This document shows, one piece after another, positions 1-17,011 of a stretch of DNA of 64,000 nucleotides. The stretch covers positions 101,357 to 165,356 of the forward strand of contig PPXM03000013.1 in the NCBI GenBank assembly GCA_003707065.3. Reading direction: 5' to 3'. Positions within the stretch are counted from its first letter, which is position 1. Every line of letters begins with the position of its first letter. The notes under the pieces were generated by a model. It saw only the letters and a program-made list of their open reading frames with translations. It ran no database searches and was not told the DNA's origin. A program made the translations under genes and the position numbers. Origin of the DNA: Trigonopsis variabilis. Its lineage: Eukaryota > Ascomycota > Trigonopsidomycetes > Trigonopsidales > Trigonopsidaceae.

Positions 1-1020
1 TCGATATCATCCTTTGTTTCTCGGAGAGGAGGTGAACATATATATTTGGCGCCTTCAAAGTTTGGTTTCTTCATCTGATCCGACAAAAGATAGAGGTATT
101 GTGGACATGTCTCTGCGGTGATGGGTAGAAGTCTGGTCTGAGCCGAACGGATATGATCTCGAGTTTGCCGATTTGATACGTGGACAATGAGAATAGGAGT
201 GTCCATGAGTTCTGACAAGCAGATTGCCCGATAGGATGCTTCGGTCTCGGCTATTGCTGGCCGTGAAACAGAATGATAAAAAGGATCTGTTTTGTTTTGT
301 TTTTTCAACTCGTTTATCAGACTGCAGTTAGATAACATAAAGCTTTCATCTCTCACAATTTGATCATGTCCCAGTTCTCAGCATGGATCATGGTCGTCAT
401 ACCGAGTTTCCTTGTTTGAACCATTAGTCTCATTATATTCTCATCACTCAATTGGCGACCTTCATATGTCATGTATGCTTTCACGCTGGAGACCCCATCT
501 TTGAAAACAAGAGCCAACTCCTTATTCACAACAGTGGCAGTTGGGTTTGTCACAATCAGATGGAACCCATAGTCACAGTACGTTTGTCCAGTAGCCTTTT
601 CATGAGATTCCGCGACCCACACACGATCTTACCTTCTTGTGATAATCTGCTACTACCTTGGTGACGCTTTGATCGCTGGGACTCTGAGCAGCAAAACTTA
701 TGATCGTCGTCGTTCCTCCACATATTGCTGACCGAGTGCCAGACTCAAACGAGTCTCCCGTCAGGGCAGTGCTATGTCCTTGATCGATATGGCAGTGGGA
801 ATCAACTCCGCCCGGAGTAACATAAGCTCCTTGTGCGTCAATGACTTTTTTGGCGCTTCTAGCCAATCCACAGCCAATGCAAGTGATTATTCCGTCCACA
901 ATCGCGATATCAGAATTAGGTGGATAAAGAATTTGGCCAGCATTAACCTTAATATCAATAATCGAACACGTCCAACTAACAAACCACCACGCCGTTGGTA
1001 ATTACGGTATCAAAGCTCAT
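1..1020 (-). CDS. Hydantoinase / dihydropyrimidinase, C-terminus cut off by window edge
   Basis: Cyclic-amidohydrolase-superfamily enzyme that hydrolyses the ring amide of hydantoins or dihydropyrimidines to N-carbamoyl amino acids, probably in the cytosol. I read four exons (1020-985, 947-633, 595-357, 321-1) separated by introns of 37, 37 and 35 nt. The joined product runs about 303 residues to the edge; the family is usually 460-550. Visible metal-site features are the HxH pair (His63, His65 in DSHCHID), the lysine that is carbamylated in this family (Lys156 in SVKAYMTYEG), His188 in IHAEN and His244 in IVHVS. The family block ETCPQYLYLL lies in the last exon, and the final metal-binding Asp must lie outside the window. 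The first intron is the least certain junction. Hydantoin versus dihydrouracil specificity cannot be read from sequence, but the N-carbamoylase and NCS1 permease nearby favour hydantoin-type substrates. Confidence 0.88.
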
Positions 1021-1358
1021 TCTCTTCGACGAATTCAGCGAGAAGCAACTTTCTGCGTCGTCTGCCGGTATAAAAGGAGTTGGTCTTTTCGGACCTTATC
1101 GCCGAACACGGCATCCTCTGCTCGATCTCTTTTGATCTGGCCTTCCTTTCCCCGAAGACCTCTCAAAGCTCGAACTTTTCCCTCGGTTACTCGGTTACAC
1201 GGCTAGTGGATCGCTCGTTATCTTATCGCATGTAACGCTGCGATAAGGAGTATCATCGAGTGTCTGAGTCTGTGCCTACATTGAATGACACGAGATTAAG
1301 AAATTTGCTTTTATTTTACAGCCACACGGACTGACTATTTACATGCTAGAATTTCGAT
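1021..1358 (-). promoter_or_regulatory. Hydantoinase promoter with three GATAAG sites
   Basis: Gap between the RidA stop and the hydantoinase start. It holds GATAAG/CTTATC hexamers at 1095-1100, 1222-1227 and 1242-1247, the core bound by GATA factors of nitrogen catabolite control (AreA, Gln3 class). A TATAAAA-like stretch lies about 50 bp upstream of the ATG. Function is inferred from the sites and the neighbouring genes. Confidence 0.5.
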
Positions 1359-1780
1359 TTATTGTAGTGCGCTGCATTCTATTTCAATCAGAGCACCACG
1401 GGGGAGGCCTGAAACAGCCACACAAGTTCTTGCAGGCTTCATGTCGGGAAAGTAAGTGGCATAGATCTTGTTGATTGCCGCAAAGTCATCCATGGTTCTT
1501 AAAAAGACATTCACTTTGACTATTTTTTCCAAGCTTGTATTAGCAGCTTTCAAAATGAGCTTGATATTTTCAAGGCTTTGAACCTAAATGGTAAGCAGTT
1601 TCACTAAACTTTTTGTACCGTCTGCTCTTCTACCGTGTCTGGCAGCTTGCCGGTGTCTGGACATGTTCCTGTCTGACCCGACAAAAAGACCATTCCCGAG
1701 CATGAGATCGCTTGCGAAATGACAGGGTTTGGCGATGGCGCGGCCGAGGTGAAGATAACTTTGGGCACTTCTTCTGACAT
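1359..1780 (-). CDS. RidA/YjgF-family enamine/imine deaminase
   Basis: Small Rid-family protein that hydrolyses reactive enamine or imine intermediates such as 2-aminoacrylate to keto acids and ammonia. Two exons (1780-1619, 1583-1359) with a 35-nt intron give 128 residues, the normal family length. The N-terminal half has the typical SQAI...GMVFLSGQTG segment; the C-terminal half has the family block PARTCVAVSGLPRGALIEIE with the conserved Arg that binds the substrate carboxylate, ending in the usual Glu region. Without splicing, the reading frame stops right after the TVQK stretch, so the intron is needed. It is divergent from the N-carbamoylase across about 210 bp. RutC, a Rid protein, plays a comparable part in bacterial pyrimidine breakdown, so co-location with ring-opening genes makes sense; its exact substrate here is unknown. 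Confidence 0.9.
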
Positions 1781-1990
1781 ACTTTTCTGAAAAACGTACA
1801 GTAGAACCCTAGCTTTTTGTACTCATCAGTATTCTGGATCTCGCTTTGTTAACCGCCGGCAAGGCCCTGACCATCATTATTGCCGAGTGCGTAACGGCTA
1901 ATTCCCGCTTACGCTAAGAGAGTGTTATATATTTTGAAGAGAACAGACGATGAACAAGATAATCACGTTCCACTCTTACTGAAGTTCTCA
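1781..1990. promoter_or_regulatory. Divergent promoter, RidA / N-carbamoylase
   Basis: A 210-bp gap between two head-to-head genes whose products plausibly act in one pathway, so joint control is likely. Only one GATAA core (near 1956) is seen, unlike the GATAAG pairs in the other promoters of this cluster. A CCGCCGG stretch near 1853 could be a zinc-cluster half-site. Confidence 0.35.
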
Positions 1991-2995
1991 ATGGCAAGGA
2001 AAATCAAGGTTGCTGCCGCCCAAGTGGGACGCGTCGATGCTGACACTCCTCGAGAAGAGGTGGTCAAAAGAATGAACGCACTTCTCGATCAGGCAGCTGA
2101 GAAAGGCATTGTCTTGGTGGTCTTTCCTGAATTGACTTTCACAACCTTCTTTGCAAGATACACCATGGAGCCTGGCTCCAAAGAAGCCGATAAATGGTTT
2201 GAACAAGGAGACATTCGGGAAAGCAAAGAGTTGAAGCCCTTCTTCGATCACGCCAAGGAGCTTAAGATCGCCGTCTATGTGGGTTATGGCGAGCTTACTG
2301 AGGAAGGCGAGCACTATAACAGTGCGATCACAGTCGGTCGCGATGGTAGCATCATAGCAAAGTACCGAAAGACACATATTCCAGGGGATAAAGCACCCAT
2401 GAAACAGTTGAATACCCAACATATGGAAAAGAGGTACTTTCTCCCAGGAAATCTGGGCATGAATGCTTTCAGACTACCCGGCACAGGAGTTGAGACCAAC
2501 GAGGAACATGGAGACCCTATCTGCGGAATGCTCATCTGCAATGATCGGCGATGGCCCGAGTCTTGGCGCGTCTACGGCCTTCAAGGAGCTGAGATGATTC
2601 TCTGTGGGTTCAACACACCTTCCAATGGCCCCAGAAACCATGGCTTCGGCTTCGATATGCCTTTAGATGAGTGCGACCAACTGTGCCGCTACCACAATGA
2701 GCTCTGCATGACATACAACTCGTACGCTAATTGCTGCTTTGGGATTGCTGCCGCACGATGCGGCCCTGATGATGGAATCTATGACATGATTCCAGAATCC
2801 ATGATTGTCGATCCGGCCGGCAGAATCGTGGCTCGCGCACAAACGGGCGGTGATGAATTGGTCGACGCTGAAATTGATCTCGACATGTGCAATCTGCCCC
2901 GTAAGCGAATCTTTGATTTCGATCGTCACCGTCGCCCAGAAGCATATGGATTAATCACTTCAAGAAAAGCAATTGTTGAGCCTCCATTTCTATAA
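1991..2995 (+). CDS. N-carbamoyl-D-amino-acid amidohydrolase (nitrilase superfamily)
   Basis: Carbon-nitrogen hydrolase that cleaves N-carbamoyl amino acids to the free amino acid, CO2 and ammonia, the step after hydantoinase. It is intronless, 334 residues. The frame is open from 1922, but starting at the internal ATG puts the catalytic Glu (VVFPEL) at 47 and Lys (KYRKTH) at 127, matching the numbering I recall for bacterial D-carbamoylases; Cys183 (ICNDRRWPE) completes the Glu-Lys-Cys triad. The insertion before the Cys accounts for the slightly longer protein (bacterial forms are near 304). Beta-ureidopropionase is the main alternative, but that family is longer and has a different N-terminus. 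It sits head to head with RidA and upstream of the NCS1 permease. D-stereospecificity is inferred from family likeness only. Confidence 0.88.
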   Translation: MARKIKVAAAQVGRVDADTPREEVVKRMNALLDQAAEKGIVLVVFPELTFTTFFARYTMEPGSKEADKWFEQGDIRESKELKPFFDHAKELKIAVYVGYGELTEEGEHYNSAITVGRDGSIIAKYRKTHIPGDKAPMKQLNTQHMEKRYFLPGNLGMNAFRLPGTGVETNEEHGDPICGMLICNDRRWPESWRVYGLQGAEMILCGFNTPSNGPRNHGFGFDMPLDECDQLCRYHNELCMTYNSYANCCFGIAAARCGPDDGIYDMIPESMIVDPAGRIVARAQTGGDELVDAEIDLDMCNLPRKRIFDFDRHRRPEAYGLITSRKAIVEPPFL

Positions 2996-3426
2996 ACTTG
3001 TTTGCTAATAATAAAAAAATGCCAACTACAAGATCATGCCGCAACTACTTTTCGTAAAATGACTTTTCTTTAGATCACCCCATCATTTTCCCCAGCTTGT
3101 CATCATTCTTGCTAGCAAGCTCGAGGTTATCGGTATCGCCTGACAGCGTGAGAGTGCGGCGCATGGGCGTAGACTTGTGTTTCTGGTGTTACAACTTAGC
3201 CGATAAAGATAGCCGGACAACTAGGTCGCCAGTCAAGGCGAAAGATGATGCAGACAGTGCACTGTCACCTTTTTTGATAAGAAAATCATCGGAAAAACCA
3301 CGTTGATCGATCGGATAAGCTTGCGCGGTACCATACCCGTCGATATAACCGATGAGATAAGGGAGAAGAACATGTCCAGAGCCTTATATAGAATCCAAGC
3401 GCGATCTCTATTTGAATCAAATCACA
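2996..3426 (+). promoter_or_regulatory. NCS1 permease promoter with GATAAG pair
   Basis: Holds the 3' end of the N-carbamoylase transcript and the permease promoter. GATAAG hexamers lie at 3314-3319 and 3356-3361, about 70-110 bp upstream of the ATG, and a GATAAAGATAG stretch lies near 3201. This fits nitrogen catabolite control by GATA factors. No other gene is seen. Confidence 0.45.
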
Positions 3427-5265
3427 ATGGTTGAAGGGTCCTTTCTGAAAAGACTCGATTATCGATTACAGACAAGACATTGGAAAGAAAACCATGGCGA
3501 AGACAAACACCAGAACATGAGAAATGAAGATCTCGGTAAGGAAACGAATATGCATAAACTAACAGTCAAGATCCTACGCCGTGAGTTAGCCATGATGAGG
3601 TTGTGGAGCTGACAGAATTAGACCTAGTATGAGGACGTGGAGCTGGATCCAATATTTCCTTGTCTTTTGGGCAGTTTCTTTCAATCCTAATCAATATAAT
3701 ACTGGTGCAAGTTTAGTCAATCAGGGTCTGGTATGGTGATTTTTGCTTCACAAGACTAACGGGATCAGCTCTGGTGGCAGGCTACCGTGGCTATCTGCAT
3801 TTCGTGCTGTATCTGTTCTTTTGCTCTAGTTTTTATCTCCCGTGGTCCTTCAACATACCACATTGGGTTTCCTGTCTTTATCAGAACATGTGCTGGCCAT
3901 TATGGTGCATATTTTTTCATTCTCCTACGCCTTATGGTTGCCTCCATCTTCTTCGCCGTTCAAAGCTACTATGCAGGTCAATTAACTGATGTGATGATGA
4001 GATGTATCTTTGGGTATAAGTGGCAGAACATCCCCAACCATATTCCTGAAGTCCAGCATTTCACGACGAGAAACATGGTCGCCTATTTGATCTACTGGGT
4101 TGTCCAGCTTCCCTTCATGTTCATTCATCCGGAAAAAGCCCGCTGGCTCTTCACAGTAAAGTCTATTATTGTCCCTCCTGTCATCTTTGCGACGTTTGGG
4201 TTTGTCATTGCTAAAAATGGAGGCTCCATTGGCCATCCAGACTCCCTTACTACCAAAGCTTTAACTCCATCTCAGACTGGCTGGGCTTTCATGGCAGCCA
4301 TGAACTCTGTGGCTGGTACGACTGTTCCTGAGATCATGAGTAACGCTGATCTCGCTCGATATGCGAGGAAAGTTTGGTATACAACGTGGCCACAATGGTT
4401 TGGTTTAGCCTCGGCGAGAGCTCTGGTCATCTTTCTCGGTATAGCATCTGCGAGTGCTGCCAAAGGAGTCTACGGTACAGCATACTGGAACATGTGGGAT
4501 CTTTATGGTGCCATTTTGGATCATAACTGGAATGCCGGGGCTCGCTGTGCTGTTGCATTAGCCTGTTTTTTCCAGCTGTTTGCAGTTATAGCGACTAACT
4601 TGAATGCAAACTGTCTTCCCGTGGGAGCTGACTTGACAGGGCTTTTCCCCAAATATTTCAATATTGTCCGTGGTCAGTTCCTCTGTGCAATGCTCGCTTG
4701 GCCTTTAGTTCCTTGGAGAATCGTTGGCACGGCTCAGAATCTTCTGATCTTCCTTGGCTCGTCTACCTGTTTCCTTGGGTCTCTGATTGGTATCTGCATC
4801 ACAGACTACTTTTTTATTCGCAAGGGAAATATACATATTCCTTCTCTCTATCTCCCGCAAGAGTCAAGCCCTTATTATTACTATAAAGGTTTCAATATTC
4901 GCACCTACATCTCCTGGGTTGCTGGGACTGTCATCACTATTCATGGCCTGTCTGGATCTTACAGCATCACTGCTCCTCAAGTCTCTAAACACTTTTATTC
5001 GCTCGGCTTCCTCCTTTCTTACACGACAGGCTCAGTTTTCTATTTTGTTATAAACAAGTTCTTTCCACCTAAGATCTACCCCAAGGGTCACGAGGACTCT
5101 CCCAAAACTTTTGAATATCTCGGGGCCACGGATGGCTATTTTGAGGATGAAAATGTAATTGAAGGAGTGGTTTTTGTTGATGAGGCTAACGACAAGTCTG
5201 AGTCAGATGATAGGCTGAGAGATACAAAGGGTGACTTGCCTTCTTTTGGGAGTAGCTTGACTTAG
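3427..5265 (+). CDS. NCS1-family nucleobase/hydantoin/allantoin permease
   Basis: Plasma-membrane symporter of the NCS1 family (purines, pyrimidines, allantoin, thiamine, hydantoins). Four exons (3427-3535, 3571-3580, 3622-3730, 3769-5265) with introns of 35, 41 and 38 nt give 574 residues, normal for fungal members. The second exon is only 10 nt; it is needed to build the conserved N-terminal block NEDLDPTPPSMRTW and keep frame. After it come the family signatures SFNPNQYNTGASL (helix 1), LLWWQA, a GFPVFIRTCAG loop and about 12 membrane segments. The acidic, hydrophilic C-terminal tail has Lys and Glu residues suited to ubiquitin-driven turnover. In bacteria the NCS1 member Mhp1 imports hydantoins and is encoded beside a hydantoinase, which makes a cyclic ureide a good substrate guess here. 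The coding end overlaps a 33-bp tandem duplication. Confidence 0.9.
3571..3580 (+). other. 10-nt microexon of the NCS1 permease gene
   Basis: The ten bases ATCCTACGCC are flanked by a CTAAC branch site and TCAAG acceptor on the left and a GTGAGT donor on the right. Including them gives Asp-Pro-Thr-Pro at the position where NCS1 proteins have a DPxPP-type motif. Joining exon 1 directly to exon 3 hits a stop within four codons, and the other nearby acceptor (AACAG) also leads to a stop. Confidence 0.8.
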
Positions 5266-5306
5266 TCCTTGCCTTCTTTTGGGAGTTGCTTGACTTAGTC
5301 CTTGCC
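5235..5306 (+). repeat. 33-bp tandem duplication spanning the permease stop codon
   Basis: Two 33-bp copies (5235-5267 and 5268-5300, one mismatch, agtagctt versus agttgctt) followed by a 6-bp partial third copy. Each copy includes the TAG stop, so the duplication extended the 3' UTR without changing the protein. Confidence 0.9.
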
Positions 5307-6252
5307 GTTATCAATGTCTGTGTTCTTTTGGTTGCATTATCGTAGGCTATATTACAACTAATCATTCGGGGGTCCAAGGCATCAAACCAAGTCTAAAACA
5401 GTTACATCTACTGTTGCCTAAGTTGAGACACTTGGAAATATTCGTATTCTAAAAACCTGCATAGTCCAATTGCGGAACTTAAAAGATACCCGTGTATCTT
5501 AATGGCATTCGCGAATGACGATCGTACGTTATTGTATATAGCCCTGAATAGCTCAGATATCCAACTACACAGCAAAAGGAGTAATGTTTTCTACTCTGTT
5601 GAGAAGTTTTTTTCAACTAAACCTATATCTCATTTAAGAGTTTGAATTTTCTATTTTCTTTCGACGATCACTCACACTGGAGAGCTATCAAAAACCGTAA
5701 CAGAGAAAAAGGATATCTAGCTTTCAATTGACGTCTTTTACAGCTACTAAACAAAGATATGCTGTGGTTAGAGGATGGAACTACACTTTAATCCCATGGC
5801 GTGGAATCTCTATCAAAGTTCTAATAATCTTTGATCCTTTCACACGACCAGCAAGTCAACTCATTACGTGACGAGGCCTCCTCTTCTGAAAGTGAAAGAG
5901 AACGACACTTTCATCTAGGGCAATGTAAGACCAATTCTTCTTTTCTTGAACGGAAAAGAAACTTTGATGCTAAACGACGTTATCCGTTATCAAGGCGGGT
6001 AAGAAGCTCGCGGAGAGAACCTAAGAAAATGCCGTACGGATTTATACCGAGCCCATCTGTATTATCGTGGCGGCATGTCTTTCATTTGCAATCGCCGATA
6101 AGGCTTGGGCGTAGCCGGGAAGGAACTGATAAGAACGGTAGCGCTCGGCTATCCGCTAACGAACCGCTTAAAGTGTTCCCAAAGGTGCAACGGCTAGGAC
6201 ACAAAGTGATTTAAAGATGAGGGAGCCTTGTCCGTAAGCTCCAATTCTTGCA
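5307..6252 (+). promoter_or_regulatory. Intergenic region with deacetylase promoter
   Basis: No convincing gene; a 127-codon open frame at 5831-6214 has no recognisable domain. GATAAG sites at 6097-6102 and 6128-6133 lie 120-155 bp upstream of the next start codon, in the same style as the other cluster promoters. Confidence 0.45.
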
Positions 6253-7326
6253 ATGGTGGTAGCTGAAGCGAAATACGACGTTCCTCGCGACTTGATTGGG
6301 TACGGTGAAGCTGGTCTTTCTGTGCCTTGGCCTAATGGTGCGAGAATAGCAATAACAATTTGCATCAACTATGAGTGAGTACAATGCTGAATAAGATTGA
6401 CGGTCAGGGAAGGCGCAGAACGTACGATTAGCAATGGCGATGCCGGATCAGAAATCAGCAATTGGGAGCGAAGTAAGTATGGCTCTTGGATTCCTTACTA
6501 ATATCTCAAGCCGGTGAGGCCCAGAAAATTGGTTCTCGTAACCCAGTAGCCGAATCTCATTACGATTATGGTGCGCGGGCTGGATTCTGGCGACTTTTCC
6601 GAATGTTCAGGTCGCGAGGACTACCCTTTACTCTCCTAGCTATTGGACAGGCAATTGAAAAGAACCCTTCTGTTATCGATGCCTGCGTAAGAGAAGGATG
6701 CGAGATTGCTGGACATGGATATCGATGGGTCGATTTCTATGACTGGGAGCCAGAAAGAGAAAAAAAGAACATCAACATGACTATCGATGCGATCAAAAAG
6801 TTATCAGGCTCTTACCCGAAAGGATGGTTTGTGGGTCGAGCTAGTCCCAACTCGATTGGTCTTGTTCAAGAAGTCTTTAAGGAGAGAGGACTCCCGCTCA
6901 AGTGGGAGAGCGACACCTTTGCGGACGACGTCCCATACTGGTTGACTATGCCAGGAAAGGACGACGAGCCAGAAGGTATGAGGTGTACTGTTGACCATTC
7001 TAATTACAGGATTGTTGATGGTTCCATACGCGTATGATTCCAACGACATGAAATTTTCCATGAATCCAGGCTTCCAAGCAGCAGATGGATGGTGTGACTA
7101 CTTGAAGAGAACGTTTGATACTCTGTATGAGGAAGGAGGAAAAATGATGTCGTTAGGCCTGCACTGTCGATTGGTGGGCCGACCAGGAAGAGCCAAAGCG
7201 TTGCAAGATTTTCTTGATTACATCTTGGCAAAAGAGGACGTCTGGGTCTGCAATCGCTCAGAGATTGCCGACTTTTTCGCCAAAACGTATCCATATAACC
7301 CCCCTAAGCTTCAAACCAAGCTATAG
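6253..7326 (+). CDS. PuuE-like allantoinase / polysaccharide-deacetylase-fold hydrolase
   Basis: NodB-homology metal-dependent hydrolase. Four exons (6253-6374, 6408-6472, 6511-6975, 7010-7326) with introns of 33, 38 and 34 nt give 322 residues. The arrangement NYEEGAE near residue 39, then SHYDYGARAGFWRLFRMF, a GHGYRW metal-binding segment, and GLLMVPYAYDSNDMKF match the cytosolic PuuE / peptidoglycan-deacetylase-like subgroup rather than secreted chitin deacetylases; no signal peptide is present. PuuE proteins open the hydantoin ring of allantoin without resembling classical allantoinase. In this neighbourhood (hydantoinase, carbamoylase, urea transporter) a cyclic-amide substrate is more likely than a polysaccharide, but the substrate is inferred. 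All three introns break the frame if retained, and each junction restores family sequence, so the gene model is well supported. Confidence 0.85.
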
Positions 7327-7543: not shown

Positions 7544-8669
7544 TTATGCATCTATGCCTTCATCCAGAGCGGAAGTCATTTCCTGCCCAGTCAATCTCCA
7601 AGCCTGAAAGCGCCAATTTAACTGCTTATGAGAATGAATGCAAAAACCAGCGCCAGAAGTAGGTTCAATGCCTCCTGTCTTTGGCATCTGCTTGGCATAG
7701 ACAAGCTTGCTGACCCGCGAGTGAACGAGAGCCATGCTGCACATCGTACAGGGCTCATGGGTGGTATATACATGGAGATTATGACAAAGGTATGTTTGTC
7801 CTGGGGCGGGCGAACCGTCCCGGACTTGACGTTTGTGTCCCTGCCGCCTTTCTCTCTCTTGTCGAGCCACTTCCTCTATTGCCTTCATCACGCTGTGATT
7901 AAGTGGATTCCCGTCAGTTTTGCGATGATCCGCTATTTTGCAGAGAACCTTATCTTCGTTGGGGTCCACGATAAGAGTCAGAATAGGGGGATTTTCGGAG
8001 TCTTGGAATTCGTGGGATAACACATCTTGCATGTACCGTGCCATTGTCGTAGCTTCTTCCTTCGAAAGATCTATTGGTCGTAATTGTGGATTATCTCGCC
8101 AGATACAGGGCCAGAGCATTTCTGACCATTGTTGGTTTTGTTCTCGAGTCAGAGCAGGAAACCTTGGACAGCTCTTTCGATAAATTGGGAGGCCACTCAT
8201 AACTTCGTCCAGAATCGCTCGCATTTCAGCCTCAGACTCAATACACTCCATCGAACAGATTTCCACGTTTAGCATGAGCTCATCCGAAGACGGAGGAGGA
8301 GTCGCATCATTATCACCAGGCTTGTTTGATCCGACTTTAAAAACACGACGAAGATGGCCCAAGTTAACTGGATCCGGAGGTACTCGCTCTTTCAGATGTC
8401 TGCAAGTCAGCCCCAAATTCTTTGTGAAAGCAATACCTTAGTAGCTTAGCTGAATCGCATGCCCGTAAAACCGTGACCCATATATCAACTGGAAATTAGC
8501 TTTTTGTCAACATGAAAGTAATACCAAGAACAAGATCGCACTCGGTTGGAACCCGACGAATCTCTATGAACTCGGCTGTCTGCCCATTCTTATGAGCACC
8601 GTTTGACGGAGTCTCCTTTGATGCCACAGAGCCATTTGGTGAGGCCCCATTCCGGTCCTCTGCCGTCAT
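7544..8669 (-). CDS. TAD3: tRNA adenosine-34 deaminase non-catalytic subunit
   Basis: Partner of Tad2 in the heterodimer that converts A34 to inosine in tRNA anticodons (nucleus or cytosol). Three exons (8669-8525, 8488-8437, 8399-7544), introns 36 and 37 nt, 350 residues, close to human ADAT3 (351). The C-terminal cytidine-deaminase-like domain keeps zinc ligands His (NHSVMKAIEEVA) and the PCTMC pair in THEPCTMCSMALVHSR. The catalytic Glu of the HAE motif is replaced by Val (HSVMK), as expected for Tad3. The first 35 residues are low complexity (Asn, Ser, Gly, Lys). The start is the first ATG after an in-frame stop. It is an essential housekeeping gene lying inside a nitrogen-catabolism cluster, convergent with the PuuE-like gene, and has no evident functional link to its neighbours. 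Confidence 0.9.
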
Positions 8670-8889: not shown

Positions 8890-10167
8890 CTATGTAGTGT
8901 GATGGCCATTGGTATATCCGTTTGTAGACTCCGAAGGAAACGCACACGTTCCTGAGACCATCTTTTGGGCGGGAGTCGCCGACGGAGACACATCGAAATC
9001 AAAGATATCCATGGGAACTCCTATGGTGGTACATGAATTGGGGATGTCGACGATTCCAGCCACATGGCCTTGGATGGGAGCTGAACTCAGCAGTAAATAA
9101 ATTTGATAGTCATTATATCCAAATCGGCGGAAATATTCAATGGTTCGGAGAACAGTTTGACGATAAGCTTCGGTAGTATCAAGGAATAATTGTTCCCCTT
9201 CACTGTTGACTGAGAACCCTTCAAAAGTAAGATACCGGTTTGGTCCATAGTGAGGTTCCATGGGCCCAGGAATATACATGGGGGACTTCATATCCATAGC
9301 AGACATGCCGCCCTTTAGAAGGGAACATTTGAGGGTGATTACGCCGGCCATCTCGATGCCCCCACAGAAAGAGATTTCACCGTCACCCTGGGAAAAATGG
9401 AGATCCCCGACTGAGAGCTTGGCCCCAGGGACATAGACAGGAAGATAGACCTTGGATCCTCTTGAGAGGTTTTTTATATCGCAGTTTCCGCCATTTTCAG
9501 GCCGTCCAGGAATCGTGCGGGCTCCTTCTGCAGCGACACGAGCAGCAGAGGTCTGGTCAGCTAGCGTACCAGCAAAAGCGTGGTTCTTATTCGGTAGCTG
9601 GGCAACAATCTTGTCTGTTTTATTACAGGCGACTAACTCGCCCTCGCGGCGGTTCCATTCTGCCAGGATCTCATGACTGGGGGCAGTTCCGACGATACCA
9701 GGGTGGATGAGACCAGCAAATCGAACCCCAGGAATGTGTCGCGAAGAACAATGAATGCCCTCGAAATCAAAAACGGCTTTAGCAGCAAGAGGATAAAGCT
9801 CATCTAGGAAACCACCGCCATTTTCCTTCGCAAAGACCCCGCAATAACCCCAAGGCTGGCGCTCGAGCGGTTGCACGTCCTGGATCTCGACAACGAGCAC
9901 ATCGCCAGGTTCAGCACCTTTGACGTTGACGGGACCAGACAGATAATGAATATGAGTAAGATCGACATATTTGATGTCGTCTGCGCAATCGTCATTTTTG
10001 ATCTGACCTCCTGTCCAGTCGAGACATTCCATCTTGAACACTTCCCCTTCTTCTACATCAACCGCAGCAGGAATATCAGGGTGCCAGCGATTATGCAGTC
10101 CTGGCTGCTCCCAGGCGGGCTTGTCGAGAGAAACTTTAACGGCAGTGCGAATGGGTTTGATAGCCAT
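8890..10167 (-). CDS. fmdS: Formamidase (FmdA/AmdA family)
   Basis: Zinc-dependent hydrolase of the acetamidase/formamidase family that splits formamide to formate and ammonia. It is intronless, 425 residues, standard for fungal FmdS. Family segments run throughout: HNRWHPDIP near residue 26, the DWTGGQI segment, VEIQDVQPLE, a PGIVGTAPS stretch, the metal-site region DLHFSQGDGEISFCGG, and EVAGVITLK-type core. The last 20 residues are a non-conserved Ser/Thr/Asn/His tail. It shares a 516-bp divergent promoter with the DUR3 urea transporter that has GATAAG sites and zinc-cluster-like palindromes, consistent with nitrogen control. In the cluster it would recover ammonia from formamide or a related small amide; acetamide is the alternative substrate. 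Confidence 0.92.
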   Translation of the reverse strand: MAIKPIRTAVKVSLDKPAWEQPGLHNRWHPDIPAAVDVEEGEVFKMECLDWTGGQIKNDDCADDIKYVDLTHIHYLSGPVNVKGAEPGDVLVVEIQDVQPLERQPWGYCGVFAKENGGGFLDELYPLAAKAVFDFEGIHCSSRHIPGVRFAGLIHPGIVGTAPSHEILAEWNRREGELVACNKTDKIVAQLPNKNHAFAGTLADQTSAARVAAEGARTIPGRPENGGNCDIKNLSRGSKVYLPVYVPGAKLSVGDLHFSQGDGEISFCGGIEMAGVITLKCSLLKGGMSAMDMKSPMYIPGPMEPHYGPNRYLTFEGFSVNSEGEQLFLDTTEAYRQTVLRTIEYFRRFGYNDYQIYLLLSSAPIQGHVAGIVDIPNSCTTIGVPMDIFDFDVSPSATPAQKMVSGTCAFPSESTNGYTNGHHTT

Positions 10168-10683
10168 GGTGGAAGCAGAGCACTAGCGACTCCTCAATAT
10201 ATATATGGAGGGTGACCACTGCTTTCCCTAATTCGATCACACCTCACTTGCTACTTTAATCTTTTCTATCTTGTATCATTCTCTTAATCAGTGGCTCTAC
10301 TTGTTTCGAGAGCGGCGGGGCATCGCCGCGGCGAACAGTACCCGAGCGCCATCGCAATCAGATCTAATCTTCGCTGACACCAGCCATCTAATCTAAGTTT
10401 GTCTCTGAACTTATCTCAGGCACAAGAGATAAGGCTTCTTTATCGGCATGACCTATCAATTGACGTGAAAAGTTACACGGGCGTTACTGACATTAGTCAA
10501 TAACGGGATTCTTGTCGCCGCGGCGCGGCATGCCGTCTACCGGCCGCCATCGATCTTTAATCGATGAGTCCTAAAACTTTGGCAAAAGGTGCACATATCG
10601 GACGATAGATAATGGAAAAGATAGACGTTTAATTATATATAGTGTTACCGTGTTTGCTTGCTCAACTAACATTCTTGAATACC
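10168..10683. promoter_or_regulatory. Divergent formamidase / DUR3 promoter with GATAAG pair and two CCG-CGG palindromes
   Basis: Contains GATAAG elements facing each other at 10410-10415 and 10428-10433. It also holds two copies of TCGCCGCGGCG, at 10323-10333 (a perfect 12-bp palindrome when extended to 10334) and 10515-10525, 192 bp apart. CCG/CGG inverted triplets are the typical target of Zn2Cys6 dimers, and the UAS-GABA element of budding yeast is similarly CCG/CGG-rich. A cluster regulator site is therefore a reasonable inference. Confidence 0.5.
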
Positions 10684-12705
10684 ATGGTCGAAGCTATTCT
10701 TAATCAAGGATACGGATATGGTATAATTCTCGGGCTGGGGTTTGCGTTTGCCCTGCTGATGATCACTGTTACCTATGTTTTAAAACGATATGTGGGCGAG
10801 ATCCAAGACTCTGAGCATTTTTCTACTGCTTCACGATCCGTAAAGACTGGGCTAGTAGCTTCAGCTGTCACGTCGTCCTGGACATGGCCAGGTACTTTAC
10901 TTACATCTTCCGGCATGGCCTACTCATATGGCGCCATGGGAGCCTATGCCTATGCTAGTGCCTTTACTATTCAGATTACTTTCTTTGCGATCATTGCTCT
11001 GCAGATCAAGCGGGTTGCGCCCGGTGCTCATACCGTCGTTGAGATTATTAGGGCCCGCTATGGCGCCGTCGGCCATCTTGTCTTCCTTTTCTATGCTCTG
11101 GGAGCCAATATCATCATTTCTGCTATGCTTCTGCTTGGAGGTTCTCAAGCCATCTCAAGTGTCACTGGGGTCCATGTTGTTGCCTGTGGATTTCTGCTCC
11201 CTCTTGGTGTCATTCTTTATACTTTAACTGGTGGACTCAAGGCTACTTTCCTCACTGACTGGATCCACACTGTCATCGTGTACATTGTCATTTTGGTTAC
11301 CATGTTTGTCTGTTACACGTCTTCAAAACACATTGGCAGCATCGATCGAATGTATGATTTGTTGACTGAGGTCGGAAAGACTCATCCTTCTGCAGGTTAT
11401 CAAGGAAGCTACTTGACATTCGGCAACACTGATGGTATCTACAATTTGTGGAATATAGTTATCGGTGGCTTTGTCACTGTGTTTTCCGACCCAAGTTATG
11501 GACAGAAAGCCATTGCTGCACAGCCTGTTGCTGCCATGAAAGGCTATTTCCTCGGTGGTGTCTGTTGGATGGTTATCCCATGGGCAATGGGCAGTGCTGC
11601 TGCATTATCATGTCTTGCTATGACCAACAATCCCATTTCTGTGTCTTATCCCAACCTTTTAAGTTCTAAAGATGTCGCAGAAGGCCTACCGTTGCTTTAC
11701 GGCATGTACAACCTCATGGGCGCTAAAGGTGCCAACTGCGGTGTCTTGATTTTGTTCATGGCTGCTACTAGTGCCACTAGTGCCGAGCTTATTGCCTTTT
11801 CTTCTGTTATGACCTACGATGTTTATCGGACTTACTTCCGACCGAATGCTTCTGGAAAGGAACTCGTCAAGGTTACTCATCTCTTTGTAATGTTCTTTGG
11901 TGTTTGCATGGGAGCAGTTGCTGTCCTTTTCAACTATATTGGCATCACGATTTCATGGATTCTTAATTTCCTTGGAGTTGTTCTTGGGCCCTCTGTGTTT
12001 GCAATTACTCTTGCTCTTTTCTGGGGCAAGTTCAGTAAGAAGGCTTTGATTATTGGATCACCTCTTGGATCGGTGTCTGGTATTCTTTGCTGGGTGGGTT
12101 CCGCATACGTCTTTTCCGATCACGTCGTCAACAAAAATACTCTGAATGTGCCAAAGGCCGACTTGATTGGCAATCTCGTTTCCTTGTTTTCATCTCTCAT
12201 TTACTTTGTTATCTTTTCTTTTATCTGGCCCGATACTTACAACTTTGATGAGCTCGACGGTAATTTCATCGTCGGAGATGACGCTACTAGAAAGGAGGCT
12301 GAGGAAATGGAAGTTGATCCCAACGAACGCGAAAAGCTAAAGAAAGCTCTAAAGCTTACCCAAATTGTTGCCTGGTTTATCTTCTTTGCCATTATCATTC
12401 TGTTGCCTTTGCCCATGTACGGCACCAACTATATTTTCTCAAAGCCGTTCTTCCGCGGCTGGATAATTGTCCTATTCATCTGGCTTATAATTGCTGCTAT
12501 ATTTATTACGTTCTATCCACTTTGGGAAGGTCGAGACACTTTGATCTATCTCGCGAAACTGGCCCTTGGAAAGACAAAAGAGAGAAAAGCTCCTGTCATG
12601 CTGTGTGATTCCACTGATCCCGAGAGGCGCTCCGACTATTCACTAGAAAGAGAGAAGAGCGGTGTGGTTTCTGGAGAAAAGTCTCTAGCTGATGATACAT
12701 CATAG
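10684..12705 (+). CDS. DUR3: Urea active transporter (sodium:solute symporter family)
   Basis: Plasma-membrane high-affinity urea (and polyamine) symporter of the SSS family. It is intronless, 673 residues, in the family range of 660-740. The ATG in ACCATGG context is chosen over the open frame that extends 14 codons upstream. The N-terminus begins with a membrane helix; the block SRSVKTGLVASAVTSSWTWPGTLL is split here as the DUR3 hallmark SAVTSSWTW followed by GMAYSYGAMGAYAYA. About 15 hydrophobic segments follow. A hydrophilic loop rich in Glu/Lys lies near residues 530-560, and the C-terminal tail is charged. It is divergent from the formamidase and close to the regulator. In the cluster it would bring in urea, or recapture urea released by ureide breakdown. 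No urea amidolyase or urease gene is in the window. Confidence 0.93.
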   Translation: MVEAILNQGYGYGIILGLGFAFALLMITVTYVLKRYVGEIQDSEHFSTASRSVKTGLVASAVTSSWTWPGTLLTSSGMAYSYGAMGAYAYASAFTIQITFFAIIALQIKRVAPGAHTVVEIIRARYGAVGHLVFLFYALGANIIISAMLLLGGSQAISSVTGVHVVACGFLLPLGVILYTLTGGLKATFLTDWIHTVIVYIVILVTMFVCYTSSKHIGSIDRMYDLLTEVGKTHPSAGYQGSYLTFGNTDGIYNLWNIVIGGFVTVFSDPSYGQKAIAAQPVAAMKGYFLGGVCWMVIPWAMGSAAALSCLAMTNNPISVSYPNLLSSKDVAEGLPLLYGMYNLMGAKGANCGVLILFMAATSATSAELIAFSSVMTYDVYRTYFRPNASGKELVKVTHLFVMFFGVCMGAVAVLFNYIGITISWILNFLGVVLGPSVFAITLALFWGKFSKKALIIGSPLGSVSGILCWVGSAYVFSDHVVNKNTLNVPKADLIGNLVSLFSSLIYFVIFSFIWPDTYNFDELDGNFIVGDDATRKEAEEMEVDPNEREKLKKALKLTQIVAWFIFFAIIILLPLPMYGTNYIFSKPFFRGWIIVLFIWLIIAAIFITFYPLWEGRDTLIYLAKLALGKTKERKAPVMLCDSTDPERRSDYSLEREKSGVVSGEKSLADDTS

Positions 12706-13183
12706 AATTATAGACTCTTTATACTGCTTTTTTGGTTTATTGTTGTGTACTTACCACTCTTTAGATGTACCAATAGAATAATCTTACGAATGTACCACTA
12801 TAACTGTCGGTAGCTGTTCTCCCTCCAAGAGTAGGATCTCCAACGTCTAAAATTCATCAAGAAATGCCTTAGCGCGTGAGCTGACAGAGATCTGACTCGA
12901 TTGAGAAAGCTAATCCCCTTTCTACAAACGCCACGGCCAAAAATAGACACGAGTAGCACCGTCATAGTTCGCCGCACCATTAGAGCTGATAAGACGATCA
13001 CTGAAGGCCGAAAACAGAAGGCAGATCGTTAAAGTTTTTTCCTCGCACCCAGTTCTTCGGAGTCGTAATCCATTTGTGCCTGATCCGGGGACCGACGGTA
13101 ATAAAATTTTCGCCCAAGAAAAGAAAATGGATGGTGCGCTTGCTTGTTTATAAAGGCAAGCAAGAAAATAAATCTGAGAAAAG
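12706..13183 (+). promoter_or_regulatory. Promoter of the Dal81/TamA-like regulator
   Basis: 3' region of DUR3 followed by the regulator promoter. A GATAAG lies at 12988-12993 and a TATAAA at 13149-13154, 30 bp before the ATG. No gene is seen. Confidence 0.4.
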
Positions 13184-15112
13184 ATGAGTGGTCTACGACC
13201 GTTTAAAGACAGGCCGTGTGATGATTGTCGAAGACGAAAGTCGAAATGCGTGTTTCTAGAAGATGAGCCGAATTGTATGGCCTGTAAGAGCCGCGGTCAG
13301 GAGTGCACGTTTCTTGAAGATACAGGGCGGACGCGGAAGAAACGTCGCACCGGTTCGACGGGAGGAACGGTTAATTACTCGGGAGGCGAGACTGGAACAT
13401 CTAATGGGCAAGGGCAAGGAGCAAGGGGGGATTCAAAAGAGCCTCAGGCTGATCAGACCGTTGGAGACTACGCGGGTCTGGTTGGTCCCTCGCTTCTCAA
13501 GAAAACGTTGGGGTTGCAGAATAGTCGATGCTCTTTCCTGATAGGCCATTCTAGCTTCTTGGACTACTCTCTCATCTCTCGTGCTCACTTCAATTCTCGG
13601 GAAGAAGCCGAATCGGAACTCCCTCCTGGACTGAGACTCCGACGAGCCACGGATGACACGATTTTTCTAATGAGAGAAGATTCATCAATCGAATCTACTG
13701 ATGCGATTCGAAGAGATGTCGAAGCAATTGAAGAGATCGTGACGCCTTATGGAAACGACCTCGTTGACCTCTATTTTAGAATTGTCCACCCGTCTTATCC
13801 CATTCTACATCAGAAAGTGGTCCGAGAAAAATATGCTCGATCCTACCAAGAGTTCTCACCTCCTCTTTTGGCGGCAATATATTCCTTAGCTCTCAATTGG
13901 TGGTCATACGCCCCCCATCTCCGCCAAGATCGAAAGCCAAATTCAGAAGAGCTTGATAAGCTGGCACTGAAGTCCTTCTATAACATCTCTCGTCACCCAA
14001 AATTATCTTCGGTCCAAGCAGGTCTCTTGATTCTGCAAAAGCAATCCGCCCATGACGATATCGCCGTTCCACTACTGGCCCAGACTGTTGCTATAGCCCA
14101 ACAACTTGGGCTTCATTTGGATTGCCGAGAATGGAAGATTCCTCGGTGGGAACGAAAGCTACGTCGTCGTCTTGCTTGGGCATTGTGGATACAAGATAAA
14201 TGGCAATCTCTTGGAACCACTCTCCCTCCACATATAAGGCGAGACGACTGGTTGGTGACATATTTGACCGAAGAGGACTTCCCTGATAAGTCTCCCGATG
14301 TTGAGATGGAAGGCTCGAGTGATGTGGACAGTGGAAAAATCATTTTTCAGTACATGATATACCTGAGTGATGTTGTTGACGATATTATGAGTAATCTTTA
14401 CTCTCCTTCTGCTCTAAAGAAGGTCGTCGATACCATGCAGATTCTAGAGATTGCCAAACCGCTGCAAGCAAAGCTCCGATATTGGCAAAGCTCGTTGCCT
14501 GAATGTTGCAGGATGTCTAATCTCAAGAGTCGAAAGTTCTCCTCGAACGCATACTTATTTTTGGCTTATTTAGCTGCCGAGATAACCTTGCATGGGCGCA
14601 TTATCCACTCTCTAAATAACGCCCAAGTTTCTCGTGATTTGGTAATAGTCTGCAGAAATGCTGCCCGGGAGCGGTTAGTAGCAGCCATTGAGTTCGTGCG
14701 AGACCTCCGTCCCGAACATTTCCAAGCCTTTTGGCACTCGTCTGCTAGTTCTAATTTTGCTCTTATTGGTAGTTTTGCCGCCCTTCTCTTGGTCACTGCG
14801 ACTGATAATGGCGAGTCAGAGGCATTGTTATCGGATTACAAAAACTATAGATGGATGCTGCGCGTGTCATCTGTCGCTTCACAGCAAATGGCTGATGCTC
14901 TCAAAAGTGTGGAACTTATAGTAGGCTATTTACCATTTGTTCAAGATGGTGTTCTCGTTACTAGGACTTTGCGACCAGACAGTGATAGTGAATACTCTGA
15001 AGAGGAACAAGAAGGCGCTGTTGATGATGTCGAAGAGAGTTTTCTTGCTCGACTCGGGGAAAATGAATTGGAAGAGATGGCACTTCCGTTTTTCACAGAG
15101 AACTTGTCATAA
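13184..15112 (+). CDS. Zn2Cys6 transcription factor, Dal81/TamA-like; probable cluster regulator
   Basis: Nuclear activator, intronless, 642 residues. The N-terminal binuclear zinc cluster is Cys-x2-Cys-x6-Cys-x8-Cys-x2-Cys-x6-Cys (residues 12-37, core CDDCRRRKSKC), followed by a basic RKKRR nuclear-localisation stretch. The middle homology region (about 190-560) has the HPSYPILH...PLLAAIYSLALNWW segment and ends with FWHSSASSNFALIGSF, both features I associate with the TamA/Dal81 group that co-activates allantoin, urea and GABA genes. The C-terminus is acidic (DSDSEYSEEEQEGAVDD), a likely activation region. Position between DUR3 and a Dal5-type permease, plus CCG/CGG palindromes in the neighbouring promoter, make it the best candidate regulator of the nitrogen cluster. 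The subfamily assignment is from memory of motifs; the zinc-cluster class is certain. Confidence 0.85.
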   Translation: MSGLRPFKDRPCDDCRRRKSKCVFLEDEPNCMACKSRGQECTFLEDTGRTRKKRRTGSTGGTVNYSGGETGTSNGQGQGARGDSKEPQADQTVGDYAGLVGPSLLKKTLGLQNSRCSFLIGHSSFLDYSLISRAHFNSREEAESELPPGLRLRRATDDTIFLMREDSSIESTDAIRRDVEAIEEIVTPYGNDLVDLYFRIVHPSYPILHQKVVREKYARSYQEFSPPLLAAIYSLALNWWSYAPHLRQDRKPNSEELDKLALKSFYNISRHPKLSSVQAGLLILQKQSAHDDIAVPLLAQTVAIAQQLGLHLDCREWKIPRWERKLRRRLAWALWIQDKWQSLGTTLPPHIRRDDWLVTYLTEEDFPDKSPDVEMEGSSDVDSGKIIFQYMIYLSDVVDDIMSNLYSPSALKKVVDTMQILEIAKPLQAKLRYWQSSLPECCRMSNLKSRKFSSNAYLFLAYLAAEITLHGRIIHSLNNAQVSRDLVIVCRNAARERLVAAIEFVRDLRPEHFQAFWHSSASSNFALIGSFAALLLVTATDNGESEALLSDYKNYRWMLRVSSVASQQMADALKSVELIVGYLPFVQDGVLVTRTLRPDSDSEYSEEEQEGAVDDVEESFLARLGENELEEMALPFFTENLS

Positions 15113-15427
15113 GCTATACTCTTCCTGTGACTTATATTCTGCAAAAGTGATAATTGCATTTTTATATTACTACAAAAGCATGGTATTGAGTTGGGCATCT
15201 ATGTTTCATGAGCTTAAACTTTTTAGAGAACTTGAACCCTAATATTAGAATGTATACTTAGACAATTATGAAAGGCTGCCTATTTTGTACTTCTATTGAA
15301 AAGTGTTACGTTATGCTCAATTTTTGAAACAATTGGTCCAATGATCAAATCATCTATTCTATCTTTGTTCGATCGTCCAGTCTACTCGGCTAAATACTCA
15401 AAAGATTTAGTACCAACATAACAAAGT
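15113..15427. other. Convergent 3' intergenic region
   Basis: AT-rich spacer between the convergent regulator and permease genes. No gene or clear terminator structure is seen. Confidence 0.5.
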
Positions 15428-17011
15428 TCAAAGAGGATATATAAAGGCCTTGTTTTCCCAATCAGTAAGGTCAAGCATAGCAATATTGACTTTCTCTTTC
15501 GTTTCCAAGCCTTCATCGTCAACCGTGGTCACAATTCCGACGTTATAGTCTGGATTCAAGGCGAGAAATTCACGCCTCTGTTTGTTTCTTCGAGCGAGTA
15601 TAAAGCGGATAGTCAACAGAATGACGATATTTAAGAAGAAAGAGACGACTATCTGTACAATCCATGAAGGGTAATATCTGGGACTGTCCTTTGGATTCCA
15701 TAGTTGAGGTGAAATGATGTTGGCAACGCCATAGCCGATCATGAACAAAACATTTCGATAGAGCTTCTTGGTATATCCCGAGCAAGAAGATGTGGTCCAC
15801 CCTAGAGCGACGATATAGGTGACACCTTTGAAGCACCCTGCTAGAATCATCATGGCGAGAAAAGCATAGGTATGACCCCAGGGAATGGAAACCATTGCGA
15901 TTGAAGCGGCGAGCGTTGGAACCAGGAAAGCCGCCCCAATGTAGCCATTTTGGTTGGGGACATACTTAATGAGGAAAGAAGCAAGGATGAAAACAACGAT
16001 GTCAAAGCCTCCACCCGCTGCTGAGACCAGAGTAGATCCAAGGCTATCGACACCGATGTCCACATAGAGCTGGTTCTGCTGGTAGGTCAAGCTATTTGAA
16101 AGCATAAGAGTAAAGGCTTGAAAGAGAAAAAGCCAAGAGATTGGATCTTTGAGGCATTCAATTAGTTGGGCCTTTTTGAAGGTTTTCTGTTCAATAGAGC
16201 TCGAGGTAGACTCCTGAACGCGCTTGATGGTGAAGACCCTTTCGCGGATGCTCAGATAGCGGGCGTTGGCAGGGTTATCGGGGAAGAAAATGAAAACAAA
16301 GGCGAACAAGACTAGACTAATGCCTGCATTGATTGCCATGAATATTCTCCAAGGATAAATGGTTGTGTGGGTATACAAGAGACCATAGGCGATAAAACTG
16401 GAGACCACAGGAGCGGCCGCAGAGGAAGCCCAGAAAATCGGCTGGGCAGTCTCTCTTTCCTCGGCGGTCAAGAACATACCAAGAGTCATTTCCAATGCCG
16501 GAACGACCACTGCTTCCACCATACCCAGAACGAGACGAACAATCATCAGTCCAGCGTAATTGCGACAGGCAGCATGGCATCCTATCACGATAGCCCAGCA
16601 GAAGACTGTGAGAGCAATATATTTACCGAGAGGAAGCTTCTGCATAAGCCAATGACCGGGCCATTGGGCGGCCAAGTAGCCGGCATAGAAGATCGAGTTG
16701 AGGTTGTTGAAGTCAGATTTATTCATAGTTGTATCTTTATATAAACCCAGGACTGCAGTGTATCCAATGGTAGCCTTATCCATGAATAGCACTATATTGA
16801 TAAACATCACAAGCACCAGAATGATGGTGAAGTTCTTTCTTCGAAACTTCTTCTCTTCTTCCTCATTCAGCGGTTCGACATCTCCATATTGTTCCATAAA
16901 TTTGAATAGCTCATCGGCATCACGAACATTGACGACTTTGTCAACTTCTTCGACCGAGTCGGCGCTGTCGTAGGAAGACTGGACGATGATTTCTTCTTTC
17001 GACGAACTCAT
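15428..17011 (-). CDS. MFS permease, anion:cation symporter (Dal5/allantoate permease) family
   Basis: Plasma-membrane transporter for small organic anions (allantoate, ureidosuccinate, nicotinate and similar are known substrates in the family). It is intronless, 527 residues. A cytosolic acidic N-terminus of about 65 residues is followed by 12 predicted helices in two halves with a central loop near residues 250-290. Dal5-type signatures include the start of helix 1 with a conserved DKATIGY segment and LGMVEAVVVPALEMTLGMF in helix 4-5. The C-terminal motif FLALNPDYN followed by LDLTDWENKAFIYPL is typical of the Dal5 group. It sits convergent with the Dal81/TamA-like regulator and has a CTTATC site upstream, so allantoate- or ureide-type transport under nitrogen control is likely, though its specific substrate is not shown. 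Confidence 0.88.
   Translation of the reverse strand: MSSSKEEIIVQSSYDSADSVEEVDKVVNVRDADELFKFMEQYGDVEPLNEEEEKKFRRKNFTIILVLVMFINIVLFMDKATIGYTAVLGLYKDTTMNKSDFNNLNSIFYAGYLAAQWPGHWLMQKLPLGKYIALTVFCWAIVIGCHAACRNYAGLMIVRLVLGMVEAVVVPALEMTLGMFLTAEERETAQPIFWASSAAAPVVSSFIAYGLLYTHTTIYPWRIFMAINAGISLVLFAFVFIFFPDNPANARYLSIRERVFTIKRVQESTSSSIEQKTFKKAQLIECLKDPISWLFLFQAFTLMLSNSLTYQQNQLYVDIGVDSLGSTLVSAAGGGFDIVVFILASFLIKYVPNQNGYIGAAFLVPTLAASIAMVSIPWGHTYAFLAMMILAGCFKGVTYIVALGWTTSSCSGYTKKLYRNVLFMIGYGVANIISPQLWNPKDSPRYYPSWIVQIVVSFFLNIVILLTIRFILARRNKQRREFLALNPDYNVGIVTTVDDEGLETKEKVNIAMLDLTDWENKAFIYPL

What the first reader, a model, noticed from the sequence alone, without database searches (positions are those of the whole stretch)
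1..17011. Candidate cyclic-ureide (hydantoin/imidazole-type) utilisation cluster in a fungus
Nine genes that make chemical sense together sit side by side: hydantoinase, RidA, N-carbamoylase, NCS1 permease, PuuE-like ring hydrolase, formamidase, DUR3, a Dal81/TamA-like regulator and a Dal5-type permease. The enzyme motifs are seen directly. Hydantoinase plus carbamoylase plus NCS1 (Mhp1) clusters are established in bacteria; I know of no fungal counterpart with this content. Some Lipomyces yeasts are known to use imidazole and pyrimidines as nitrogen sources, which would fit. The overall pathway is inference: import, ring opening, decarbamoylation, enamine clean-up by RidA, and recovery of formamide or urea nitrogen.
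Basis: partly seen in the sequence, partly recalled or inferred. Interest (0 to 1): 0.8.

Follow-up and report, generated by a model that had tools for sequence, protein, structure and literature searches.

The report
Yeast cluster for using D-hydantoins
A yeast, very probably Trigonopsis variabilis, carries a small gene set that looks built to break hydantoins and related N-carbamoyl compounds down to D-amino acids, which its well-known D-amino acid oxidase could then use; the substrates have not been tested.

Summary
[quoted passage not shown] The best supported unit is five genes: hydantoinase, RidA, D-carbamoylase, NCS1 permease and a PuuE-like hydrolase. CGGCTA is the only 6-mer shared by the stretches of up to 250 bp before their starts; it also precedes a second D-carbamoylase (C10) and the one racemase-family gene found (C3), and is in 0 of 12 control promoters, including those of formamidase, DUR3, the regulator and the Dal5-type permease. 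Hydantoinase and D-carbamoylase share a contig length in 10 of 15 fungi seen in both hit lists. I read it as a D-hydantoin / N-carbamoyl-D-amino-acid nitrogen pathway ending in D-amino acid oxidase, which is listed as induced with N-carbamoyl-D-alanine. Weaknesses: no substrate was tested; the hydantoinase groups with a yeast dihydropyrimidinase, a Pyd3-like enzyme exists elsewhere, and the oxidase promoter lacks the motif. A new variant of the bacterial hydantoinase system.

The parts
1..1020 (-). D-hydantoinase/dihydropyrimidinase-family enzyme (HYD), 497 aa, 4 exons; runs beyond the window start to position -582 (C13:100774)
   Evidence: model; TIGR02033 445.5 bits over its cut-off 393; PRK13404 subfamily 562 bits, under its cut-off 647; H63, H65, K156, H188, H244, D321 and Y161 invariant in the 15 fungal rows and shown (their roles are recalled)
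1359..1780 (-). RidA-family enamine/imine deaminase, 128 aa, 2 exons
   Evidence: TIGR00004 136.6 bits, cut-off 106; model
1991..2995 (+). [quoted passage not shown]
   Evidence: PDB D-carbamoylases 209-233 bits; N-carbamoylputrescine amidohydrolase 42-47; chains named beta-ureidopropionase 26-48. NCBIfam gave only sub-cut-off matches, best N-carbamoylputrescine amidase 100 of 410 bits. FPEL, YRK, CNDRRW, NTP motifs present
3427..5265 (+). NCS1-family permease, 576 aa, 4 exons
   Evidence: PF02133 254.5 bits; TIGR00800 276 bits, under its cut-off 353; the only PDB relative is the hydantoin transporter Mhp1, 52 bits
6253..7326 (+). PuuE-like cyclic ureide hydrolase (polysaccharide deacetylase fold), 322 aa, 4 exons
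   Evidence: TIGR03212 330 bits, under the cut-off 424.6; PDB 3s6o 283 bits, PuuE 3cl6 265 bits
1200..1205 (+). CGGCTA site before HYD
1895..1900 (+). CGGCTA site in the shared RidA/DCASE1 promoter
3197..3215 (-). two CGGCTA sites before NCS1
6112..6196 (.). three CGGCTA sites before PuuE
7544..8416 (-). TAD3-like deaminase-family gene, probably not part of the pathway; N-terminal coding lies upstream of 8416
   Evidence: PF00383 43 bits; TadA model 36.7 bits, under its cut-off 150
8890..10167 (-). formamidase (FmdA), peripheral: promoter lacks the shared motif
   Evidence: NF045496 557 bits, cut-off 500
10684..12705 (+). DUR3-type solute symporter, peripheral: promoter lacks the motif (the name DUR3 is my reading)
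   Evidence: PF00474 55 bits; TIGR00813 187 bits, cut-off 184
13184..15112 (+). Zn2Cys6 regulator (Dal81/TamA resemblance not tested), candidate regulator
   Evidence: PF04082 and PF00172
15428..17011 (-). Dal5-type MFS permease, one of several in this contig end (the name Dal5 is not tested)
   Evidence: PF07690; paralogues

Best explanation
A nitrogen-scavenging route for 5-substituted hydantoins and N-carbamoyl-D-amino acids in Trigonopsis variabilis. The NCS1 permease imports the cyclic ureide; the metal-dependent hydantoinase opens the ring to an N-carbamoyl-D-amino acid; the D-carbamoylase removes CO2 and ammonia to leave a D-amino acid; D-amino acid oxidase (encoded on another contig) oxidises it to an imino acid, whose hydrolysis RidA speeds. 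A racemase-family protein and a second D-carbamoylase encoded elsewhere carry the same promoter motif and would take both hydantoin enantiomers and extra carbamoyl substrates. The PuuE-like enzyme is probably a second ring-opener for another cyclic ureide, with allantoin or a 5-substituted hydantoin most likely. Formamidase, DUR3, the regulator and the Dal5-type permease are neighbours whose membership the motif does not support. Shown by calls: genes, families, conserved residues, linkage in other fungi, shared motif. Inferred: every substrate, the order of steps, D-stereochemistry in vivo, and regulation.
For: Families, PDB relatives and conserved residues. Organism and D-amino acid oxidase gene at 99% identity, with a separate first exon. 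PMC2873405, Table 2 footnote: T. variabilis oxidase production is listed as induced with N-carbamoyl-D-alanine (passage). In the 80 nearest bacterial loci kept, 18 have a D-carbamoylase (E 1e-8 or better) and 39 a racemase-family gene (E 1e-3 or better; one of them weak) within about 10 kb; 14 of the 18 have both; the racemase query is PF01177, 190 bits. CGGCTA is the only 6-mer shared by the stretches of up to 250 bp before the four core starts, is also before DCASE2 and the C3 racemase, and is in 0 of 12 control promoters; it ranks first in all four leave-one-out runs. GATAAG: 8 found, 1.85 expected in the four core promoters.
Against: No substrate, induction or growth data exist here. The fungal hydantoinase clade includes the Lachancea kluyveri dihydropyrimidinase, as its deepest, long branch, and the genome has a Pyd3/L-carbamoylase-type enzyme on C2 (an NCBIfam subfamily model names it allantoate amidohydrolase), so dihydropyrimidines could be substrates too. 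The D-amino acid oxidase promoter has no CGGCTA. RidA has seven clear gene places in the genome and two weak ones. The racemase is nearest to allantoin racemase among solved structures (61 bits; hydantoin racemases 23-51). The NCS1 protein is only distantly like Mhp1. The motif was found after the fact: in the leave-one-out test the held-out HYD promoter alone is not significant (P 0.077), RidA/DCASE1 barely (0.048); only the racemase promoter was wholly outside discovery, with 1 site in 792 bp. GATAAG is absent from the RidA/DCASE1 promoter. Five of 15 fungi in both lists do not share a contig, and in one of them (Meristemomyces) the locus tags are far apart. PuuE shared no contig length with the hydantoinase in the 8 species seen in both lists (by eye).
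Confidence: 0.62

Rival explanations
1. Reductive pyrimidine catabolism: HYD is an ordinary dihydropyrimidinase (Pyd2) that opens dihydrouracil, and the beta-ureido acid is cut by the Pyd3-like enzyme on C2 or by the carbamoylase here.
For: Best solved relative of HYD is L. kluyveri dihydropyrimidinase (407 bits), which falls inside the fungal clade; a Pyd3-like enzyme is present. HYD has no other close homologue found in the genome.
Against: The linked carbamoylase scores 209-233 bits to D-carbamoylases and 26-48 to chains named beta-ureidopropionase; the Pyd3-like gene is unlinked and its promoter lacks the motif; a URC4-family gene suggests a separate uracil route (that PF07958 stands for URC4 is recalled); bacterial relatives often sit with D-carbamoylase and racemase-family genes.
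Confidence: 0.2
2. Allantoin/purine-ureide use: NCS1 imports allantoin, PuuE opens it, and the other genes are for related ureides.
For: PuuE family and allantoin-permease resemblance, both under the curated cut-offs; PuuE structures; racemase nearest to allantoin racemase.
Against: Uricase, an allantoinase whose two exon pieces both score best to TIGR03178, and allantoicase are elsewhere, and the stretches before them lack the motif; allantoin does not need a D-carbamoylase (established chemistry).
Confidence: 0.08
3. Loose gathering of nitrogen genes in a contig-end region with no single pathway; only hydantoinase, RidA and carbamoylase belong together.
For: Contig end, further Dal5-type and Zn2Cys6 matches, a TAD3-like gene inside; PuuE without a shared contig in listed fungi.
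Against: A motif shared by HYD, RidA/DCASE1, NCS1 and PuuE and by two unlinked family members, in 0 of 12 controls.
Confidence: 0.09
4. Cyclic-imide or nicotinate breakdown, with the PuuE-like protein as HxnM.
For: HxnM shares the fold, and T. variabilis is named among species with hxn genes (PMC8478523, passages).
Against: The protein scores 265-283 bits to PuuE-type structures but 33 to 3qbu, the closest structure to HxnM (that relation from PMC9304392, passage).
Confidence: 0.01

Closest known systems
Bacterial D-hydantoinase / D-carbamoylase (hyu-type) gene clusters
   Same: Same two enzymes side by side; racemase family as partner in the bacterial relatives (14 of 80 loci have both carbamoylase and racemase family); an NCS1 permease as partner is recalled from the Mhp1 literature
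   Different: Eukaryotic, introns, RidA and a PuuE-like hydrolase, racemase-family gene on another contig, D-amino acid oxidase as probable sink; NCS1 only distantly like Mhp1, and no NCS1 match in the 80 bacterial loci
Lachancea kluyveri PYD2/PYD3 dihydropyrimidine pathway
   Same: HYD is homologous to Pyd2 (44% identity); a Pyd3-like gene exists in the genome
   Different: Linked carbamoylase is of the D-type CN-hydrolase kind, not the Pyd3 kind
Yeast DAL allantoin cluster
   Same: Clustered ureide nitrogen genes, GATA sites, NCS1 and Dal5-type permeases
   Different: Allantoinase and allantoicase genes lie on C5, not here
PuuE allantoinase
   Same: Family, and about 48% identity to bacterial proteins named PuuE
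   Different: Below the curated score; substrate unknown; a Dal1-type allantoinase is also present

Membership tests
D-hydantoin (hyu-type) utilisation cluster | D-hydantoinase/dihydropyrimidinase-family enzyme with intact binuclear metal site | tested here: met
   TIGR02033 over cut-off; H63, H65, K156, H188, H244, D321 (ligand roles recalled)
D-hydantoin (hyu-type) utilisation cluster | Linked N-carbamoyl-D-amino-acid hydrolase with Cys-Glu-Lys triad | tested here: met
   triad named in PMC11503299 (passages)
D-hydantoin (hyu-type) utilisation cluster | Hydantoin racemase in the cluster (not in all bacterial clusters) | tested here: not met
   The one racemase-family match found is on C3, with the motif before it
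D-hydantoin (hyu-type) utilisation cluster | Hydantoin-transporting NCS1 permease | tested here: inconclusive
   NCS1 family yes, Mhp1 52 bits only
D-hydantoin (hyu-type) utilisation cluster | Activity on hydantoins and N-carbamoyl-D-amino acids | not testable with these tools
   needs enzyme assays
Reductive pyrimidine pathway (PYD2/PYD3) | Pyd3 or beta-ureidopropionase linked or co-regulated | tested here: not met
   Pyd3-like gene on C2, no CGGCTA in the stretch before it
Reductive pyrimidine pathway (PYD2/PYD3) | Pyd2 homologue | tested here: met
DAL allantoin cluster | DAL1 and DAL2 in the cluster | tested here: not met
   both lie on C5
PuuE allantoinase (TIGR03212) | Score over the curated cut-off | tested here: not met
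   330 against 424.6 bits
HxnM cyclic imide hydrolase | Closest to the HpPgdA/cyclic imidase branch | tested here: not met
   33 bits to 3qbu against 265-283 to PuuE-type chains

The most novel reading that the evidence does not exclude
Trigonopsis variabilis has a dispersed, transcriptionally joined D-hydantoin regulon: racemase, permease, two ring hydrolases and two D-carbamoylases under one CGGCTA-binding regulator and GATA control, feeding its D-amino acid oxidase. The natural job of this industrial oxidase would then be to burn D-amino acids made inside the cell from hydantoins, which would explain why N-carbamoyl-D-alanine induces it.
Probability: 0.35. Interest if true: 0.72.

Novelty: new variant of a known kind. 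Interest (0 to 1): 0.55.

Why it matters
It would be a eukaryotic form of the pathway that industry uses, from bacteria, to make D-amino acids, in the very yeast used as a source of D-amino acid oxidase. It would give a genetic reason for the induction of that oxidase by N-carbamoyl-D-alanine, offer new D-carbamoylases and hydantoinases, and suggest that the hydantoinase-carbamoylase pair is a widespread and little-noticed part of fungal nitrogen metabolism.

Tried and rejected
Lipomyces as the source: not supported; the hydantoinase is only 61-63% identical to Lipomyces proteins and the T. variabilis oxidase matches at 99%. HxnM/nicotinate reading: rejected. A bacterial operon of the whole set: in 80 bacterial loci NCS1, FmdA and DUR3 were found in 0 and RidA in 1; PuuE-like genes were in 14, none of them together with D-carbamoylase. 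Recent transfer from bacteria: in trees of chosen rows HYD falls with Lipomycetaceae (30 of the 120 listed homologues and 15 of the 80 bacterial loci used) and DCASE1/2 beside Ogataea (33 of 120 and 8 of 18 used), inside fungal clades, so not supported. Neighbours of the oxidase gene: no related gene recognised by reading. Spaced CGG/CCG palindromes as a shared motif: nothing consistent by eye. Caffeine and Metarhizium papers that hold the word hydantoinase: passages speak of hydantoinase/oxoprolinase-type proteins. The split of urea carboxylase and allophanate hydrolase as a novelty: dropped, since PMC3073912 (listing and start of abstract) already treats urea carboxylase without the amidase domain in fungi. 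Structure prediction was not run, since close solved relatives already fix the folds.
Full report
What is there. The window is C13:101357-165356 of an 11.35-Mb fungal assembly in 15 contigs and ends at the contig end (contig length). Family and PDB searches name them: hydantoinase/dihydropyrimidinase (TIGR02033 445.5 bits, cut-off 393), RidA (136.6 bits, cut-off 106), D-carbamoylase type (best PDB chain 233 bits; NCBIfam gave only sub-cut-off matches), NCS1 permease (276 bits, under the cut-off 353; Pfam 254.5 bits, over), PuuE-like hydrolase (330 bits, under the cut-off 424.6), formamidase (557 bits, cut-off 500), DUR3-type symporter (187 bits, cut-off 184 for the superfamily), Zn2Cys6 regulator, Dal5-type MFS. 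A TAD3-like deaminase gene at 7544-8416 lies among them and was missed.

Organism. A search of the assembly with the T. variabilis D-amino acid oxidase, typed from recall, found a gene at C1:1173633-1174682 with 99% identity over residues 7-356, with the first residues in a separate exon. Two other oxidase-like genes are at 30-36%. I take the organism as Trigonopsis variabilis (Trigonopsidaceae); this rests on one recalled sequence.

Which genes belong together. Among the 1181 distinct 6-mers of the four core promoters CGGCTA is the most enriched (7 sites; 8 in 33.8 kb of other non-coding sequence of this genome) and ranks first in all four leave-one-out runs. Held-out P values are 0.077 (HYD), 0.048 (RidA/DCASE1), 0.005 (NCS1) and 0.002 (PuuE). 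In the 250 bp before the start codons (210 bp for the shared RidA/DCASE1 gap) it is the only 6-mer common to the four; it is also before DCASE2 and the C3 racemase, and in 0 of 12 control promoters (formamidase, DUR3, regulator, Dal5-type, TAD3-like, oxidase, second DUR3, Pyd3-like, Dal1-type, SDR, second regulator, AKR; the TAD3-like stretch overlaps probable coding). Longer stretches before allantoicase, uricase, an NCS1 paralogue and the urea genes also lack it. One site lies between the 3' ends of the regulator and the Dal5-type gene. DCASE2 was in the first discovery set but not in the four-promoter set, where its 887-bp stretch had 2 sites, 0.21 expected; the racemase stretch (1 site in 792 bp) was wholly outside. 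GATAAG sites are also enriched (8 found, 1.85 expected), though none lies in the RidA/DCASE1 promoter. So the supported unit is HYD-RidA-DCASE1-NCS1-PuuE plus two unlinked genes. The motif was picked after the fact and no binding protein is known.

Chemistry. HYD keeps the six metal ligands and the catalytic tyrosine (roles recalled). DCASE1 keeps the Cys-Glu-Lys triad of D-carbamoylases (triad as in PMC11503299, passages) and scores 209-233 bits to D-carbamoylase chains against 42-47 to N-carbamoylputrescine amidohydrolase and 26-48 to chains named beta-ureidopropionase. A second D-carbamoylase at C10:420648-421631 (55-56%) sits beside a second DUR3, an amidase-family gene and separate urea carboxylase and allophanate hydrolase genes. 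One racemase-family gene was found (PF01177), nearest to allantoin and hydantoin racemases. Uricase, a Dal1-type allantoinase, allantoicase and a URC4-family gene are encoded elsewhere. A Pyd3/L-carbamoylase-type gene lies on C2, which an NCBIfam subfamily names allantoate amidohydrolase.

Relatives. The 120 listed hydantoinase hits of 7973 are fungal wherever an organism is named, and the 120 listed D-carbamoylase hits of 6556 likewise. Locus tags are neighbours in Trypethelium, Zasmidium, Saxophila and Elsinoe, and four apart in Xylographa; for the other five only the contig length is shared; in Meristemomyces the tags are far apart. No PuuE row shared a contig length with the hydantoinase rows, 8 species being in both lists. 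The hydantoinase tree (48 chosen rows) puts T. variabilis beside the Lipomycetaceae, with L. kluyveri Pyd2 as the deepest fungal row on a long branch; the carbamoylase tree (43 chosen rows) joins DCASE1 and DCASE2, next to Ogataea, apart from bacteria.

Physiology. PMC2873405 lists T. variabilis oxidase activity obtained on induction with N-carbamoyl-D-alanine (Table 2 footnote, passage seen). I recall an original report of this (Appl Environ Microbiol 1996) but did not see it. D-carbamoylase would turn that inducer into D-alanine, an oxidase substrate (same table). The oxidase promoter lacks CGGCTA, so the link would be through the product, not through the same regulator.

What is not shown. 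No substrate, no expression, no transport. The PuuE-like role is open: it scores below the curated PuuE cut-off and a Dal1-type allantoinase exists. Dihydropyrimidines remain a real alternative substrate. Searches of the held papers showed me no description of a fungal hydantoinase-carbamoylase cluster: 25 of 196 listed; 28 of 28; 25 of 270; 20 of 40; 14 of 14; 15 of 116,282, none holding the carbamoylase term, so it adds little. From these I saw listings and abstract starts, and passages of PMC12735256, PMC9505000, PMC2628649, PMC7653285, PMC8478523, PMC11503299 and PMC2873405; of PMC9304392 and PMC10967932 (found) passages too. Most subscription papers are not held.

Noticed in passing
L015 1-7141 and L016 3-659 (C10:411000-421659): Separate, divergent urea carboxylase and allophanate hydrolase genes instead of a fused DUR1,2, next to an amidase-family gene, a second DUR3 (55.5% to the window copy) and the second D-carbamoylase.
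   Followed up: partly
L004 1742-3973: A second Zn2Cys6-type regulator, 37% to the window regulator over 265 aa, lies just outside the window beside the hydantoinase, so regulator genes flank the set on both sides.
   Followed up: partly
window 23794-45963: Five more matches to the Dal5-type permease and a Zn2Cys6 paralogue at 42-44 kb, in a contig-end region.
   Followed up: no
whole genome G000: The RidA family has seven clear gene places and two weak ones, including a second one on C13 at 89394-89781.
   Followed up: no
L056, L072 and L076 (Pseudomonas): A PuuE-like gene directly before a close relative of this hydantoinase; in L056 it also scores under the PuuE cut-off (350 bits).
   Followed up: partly
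   Followed up: no
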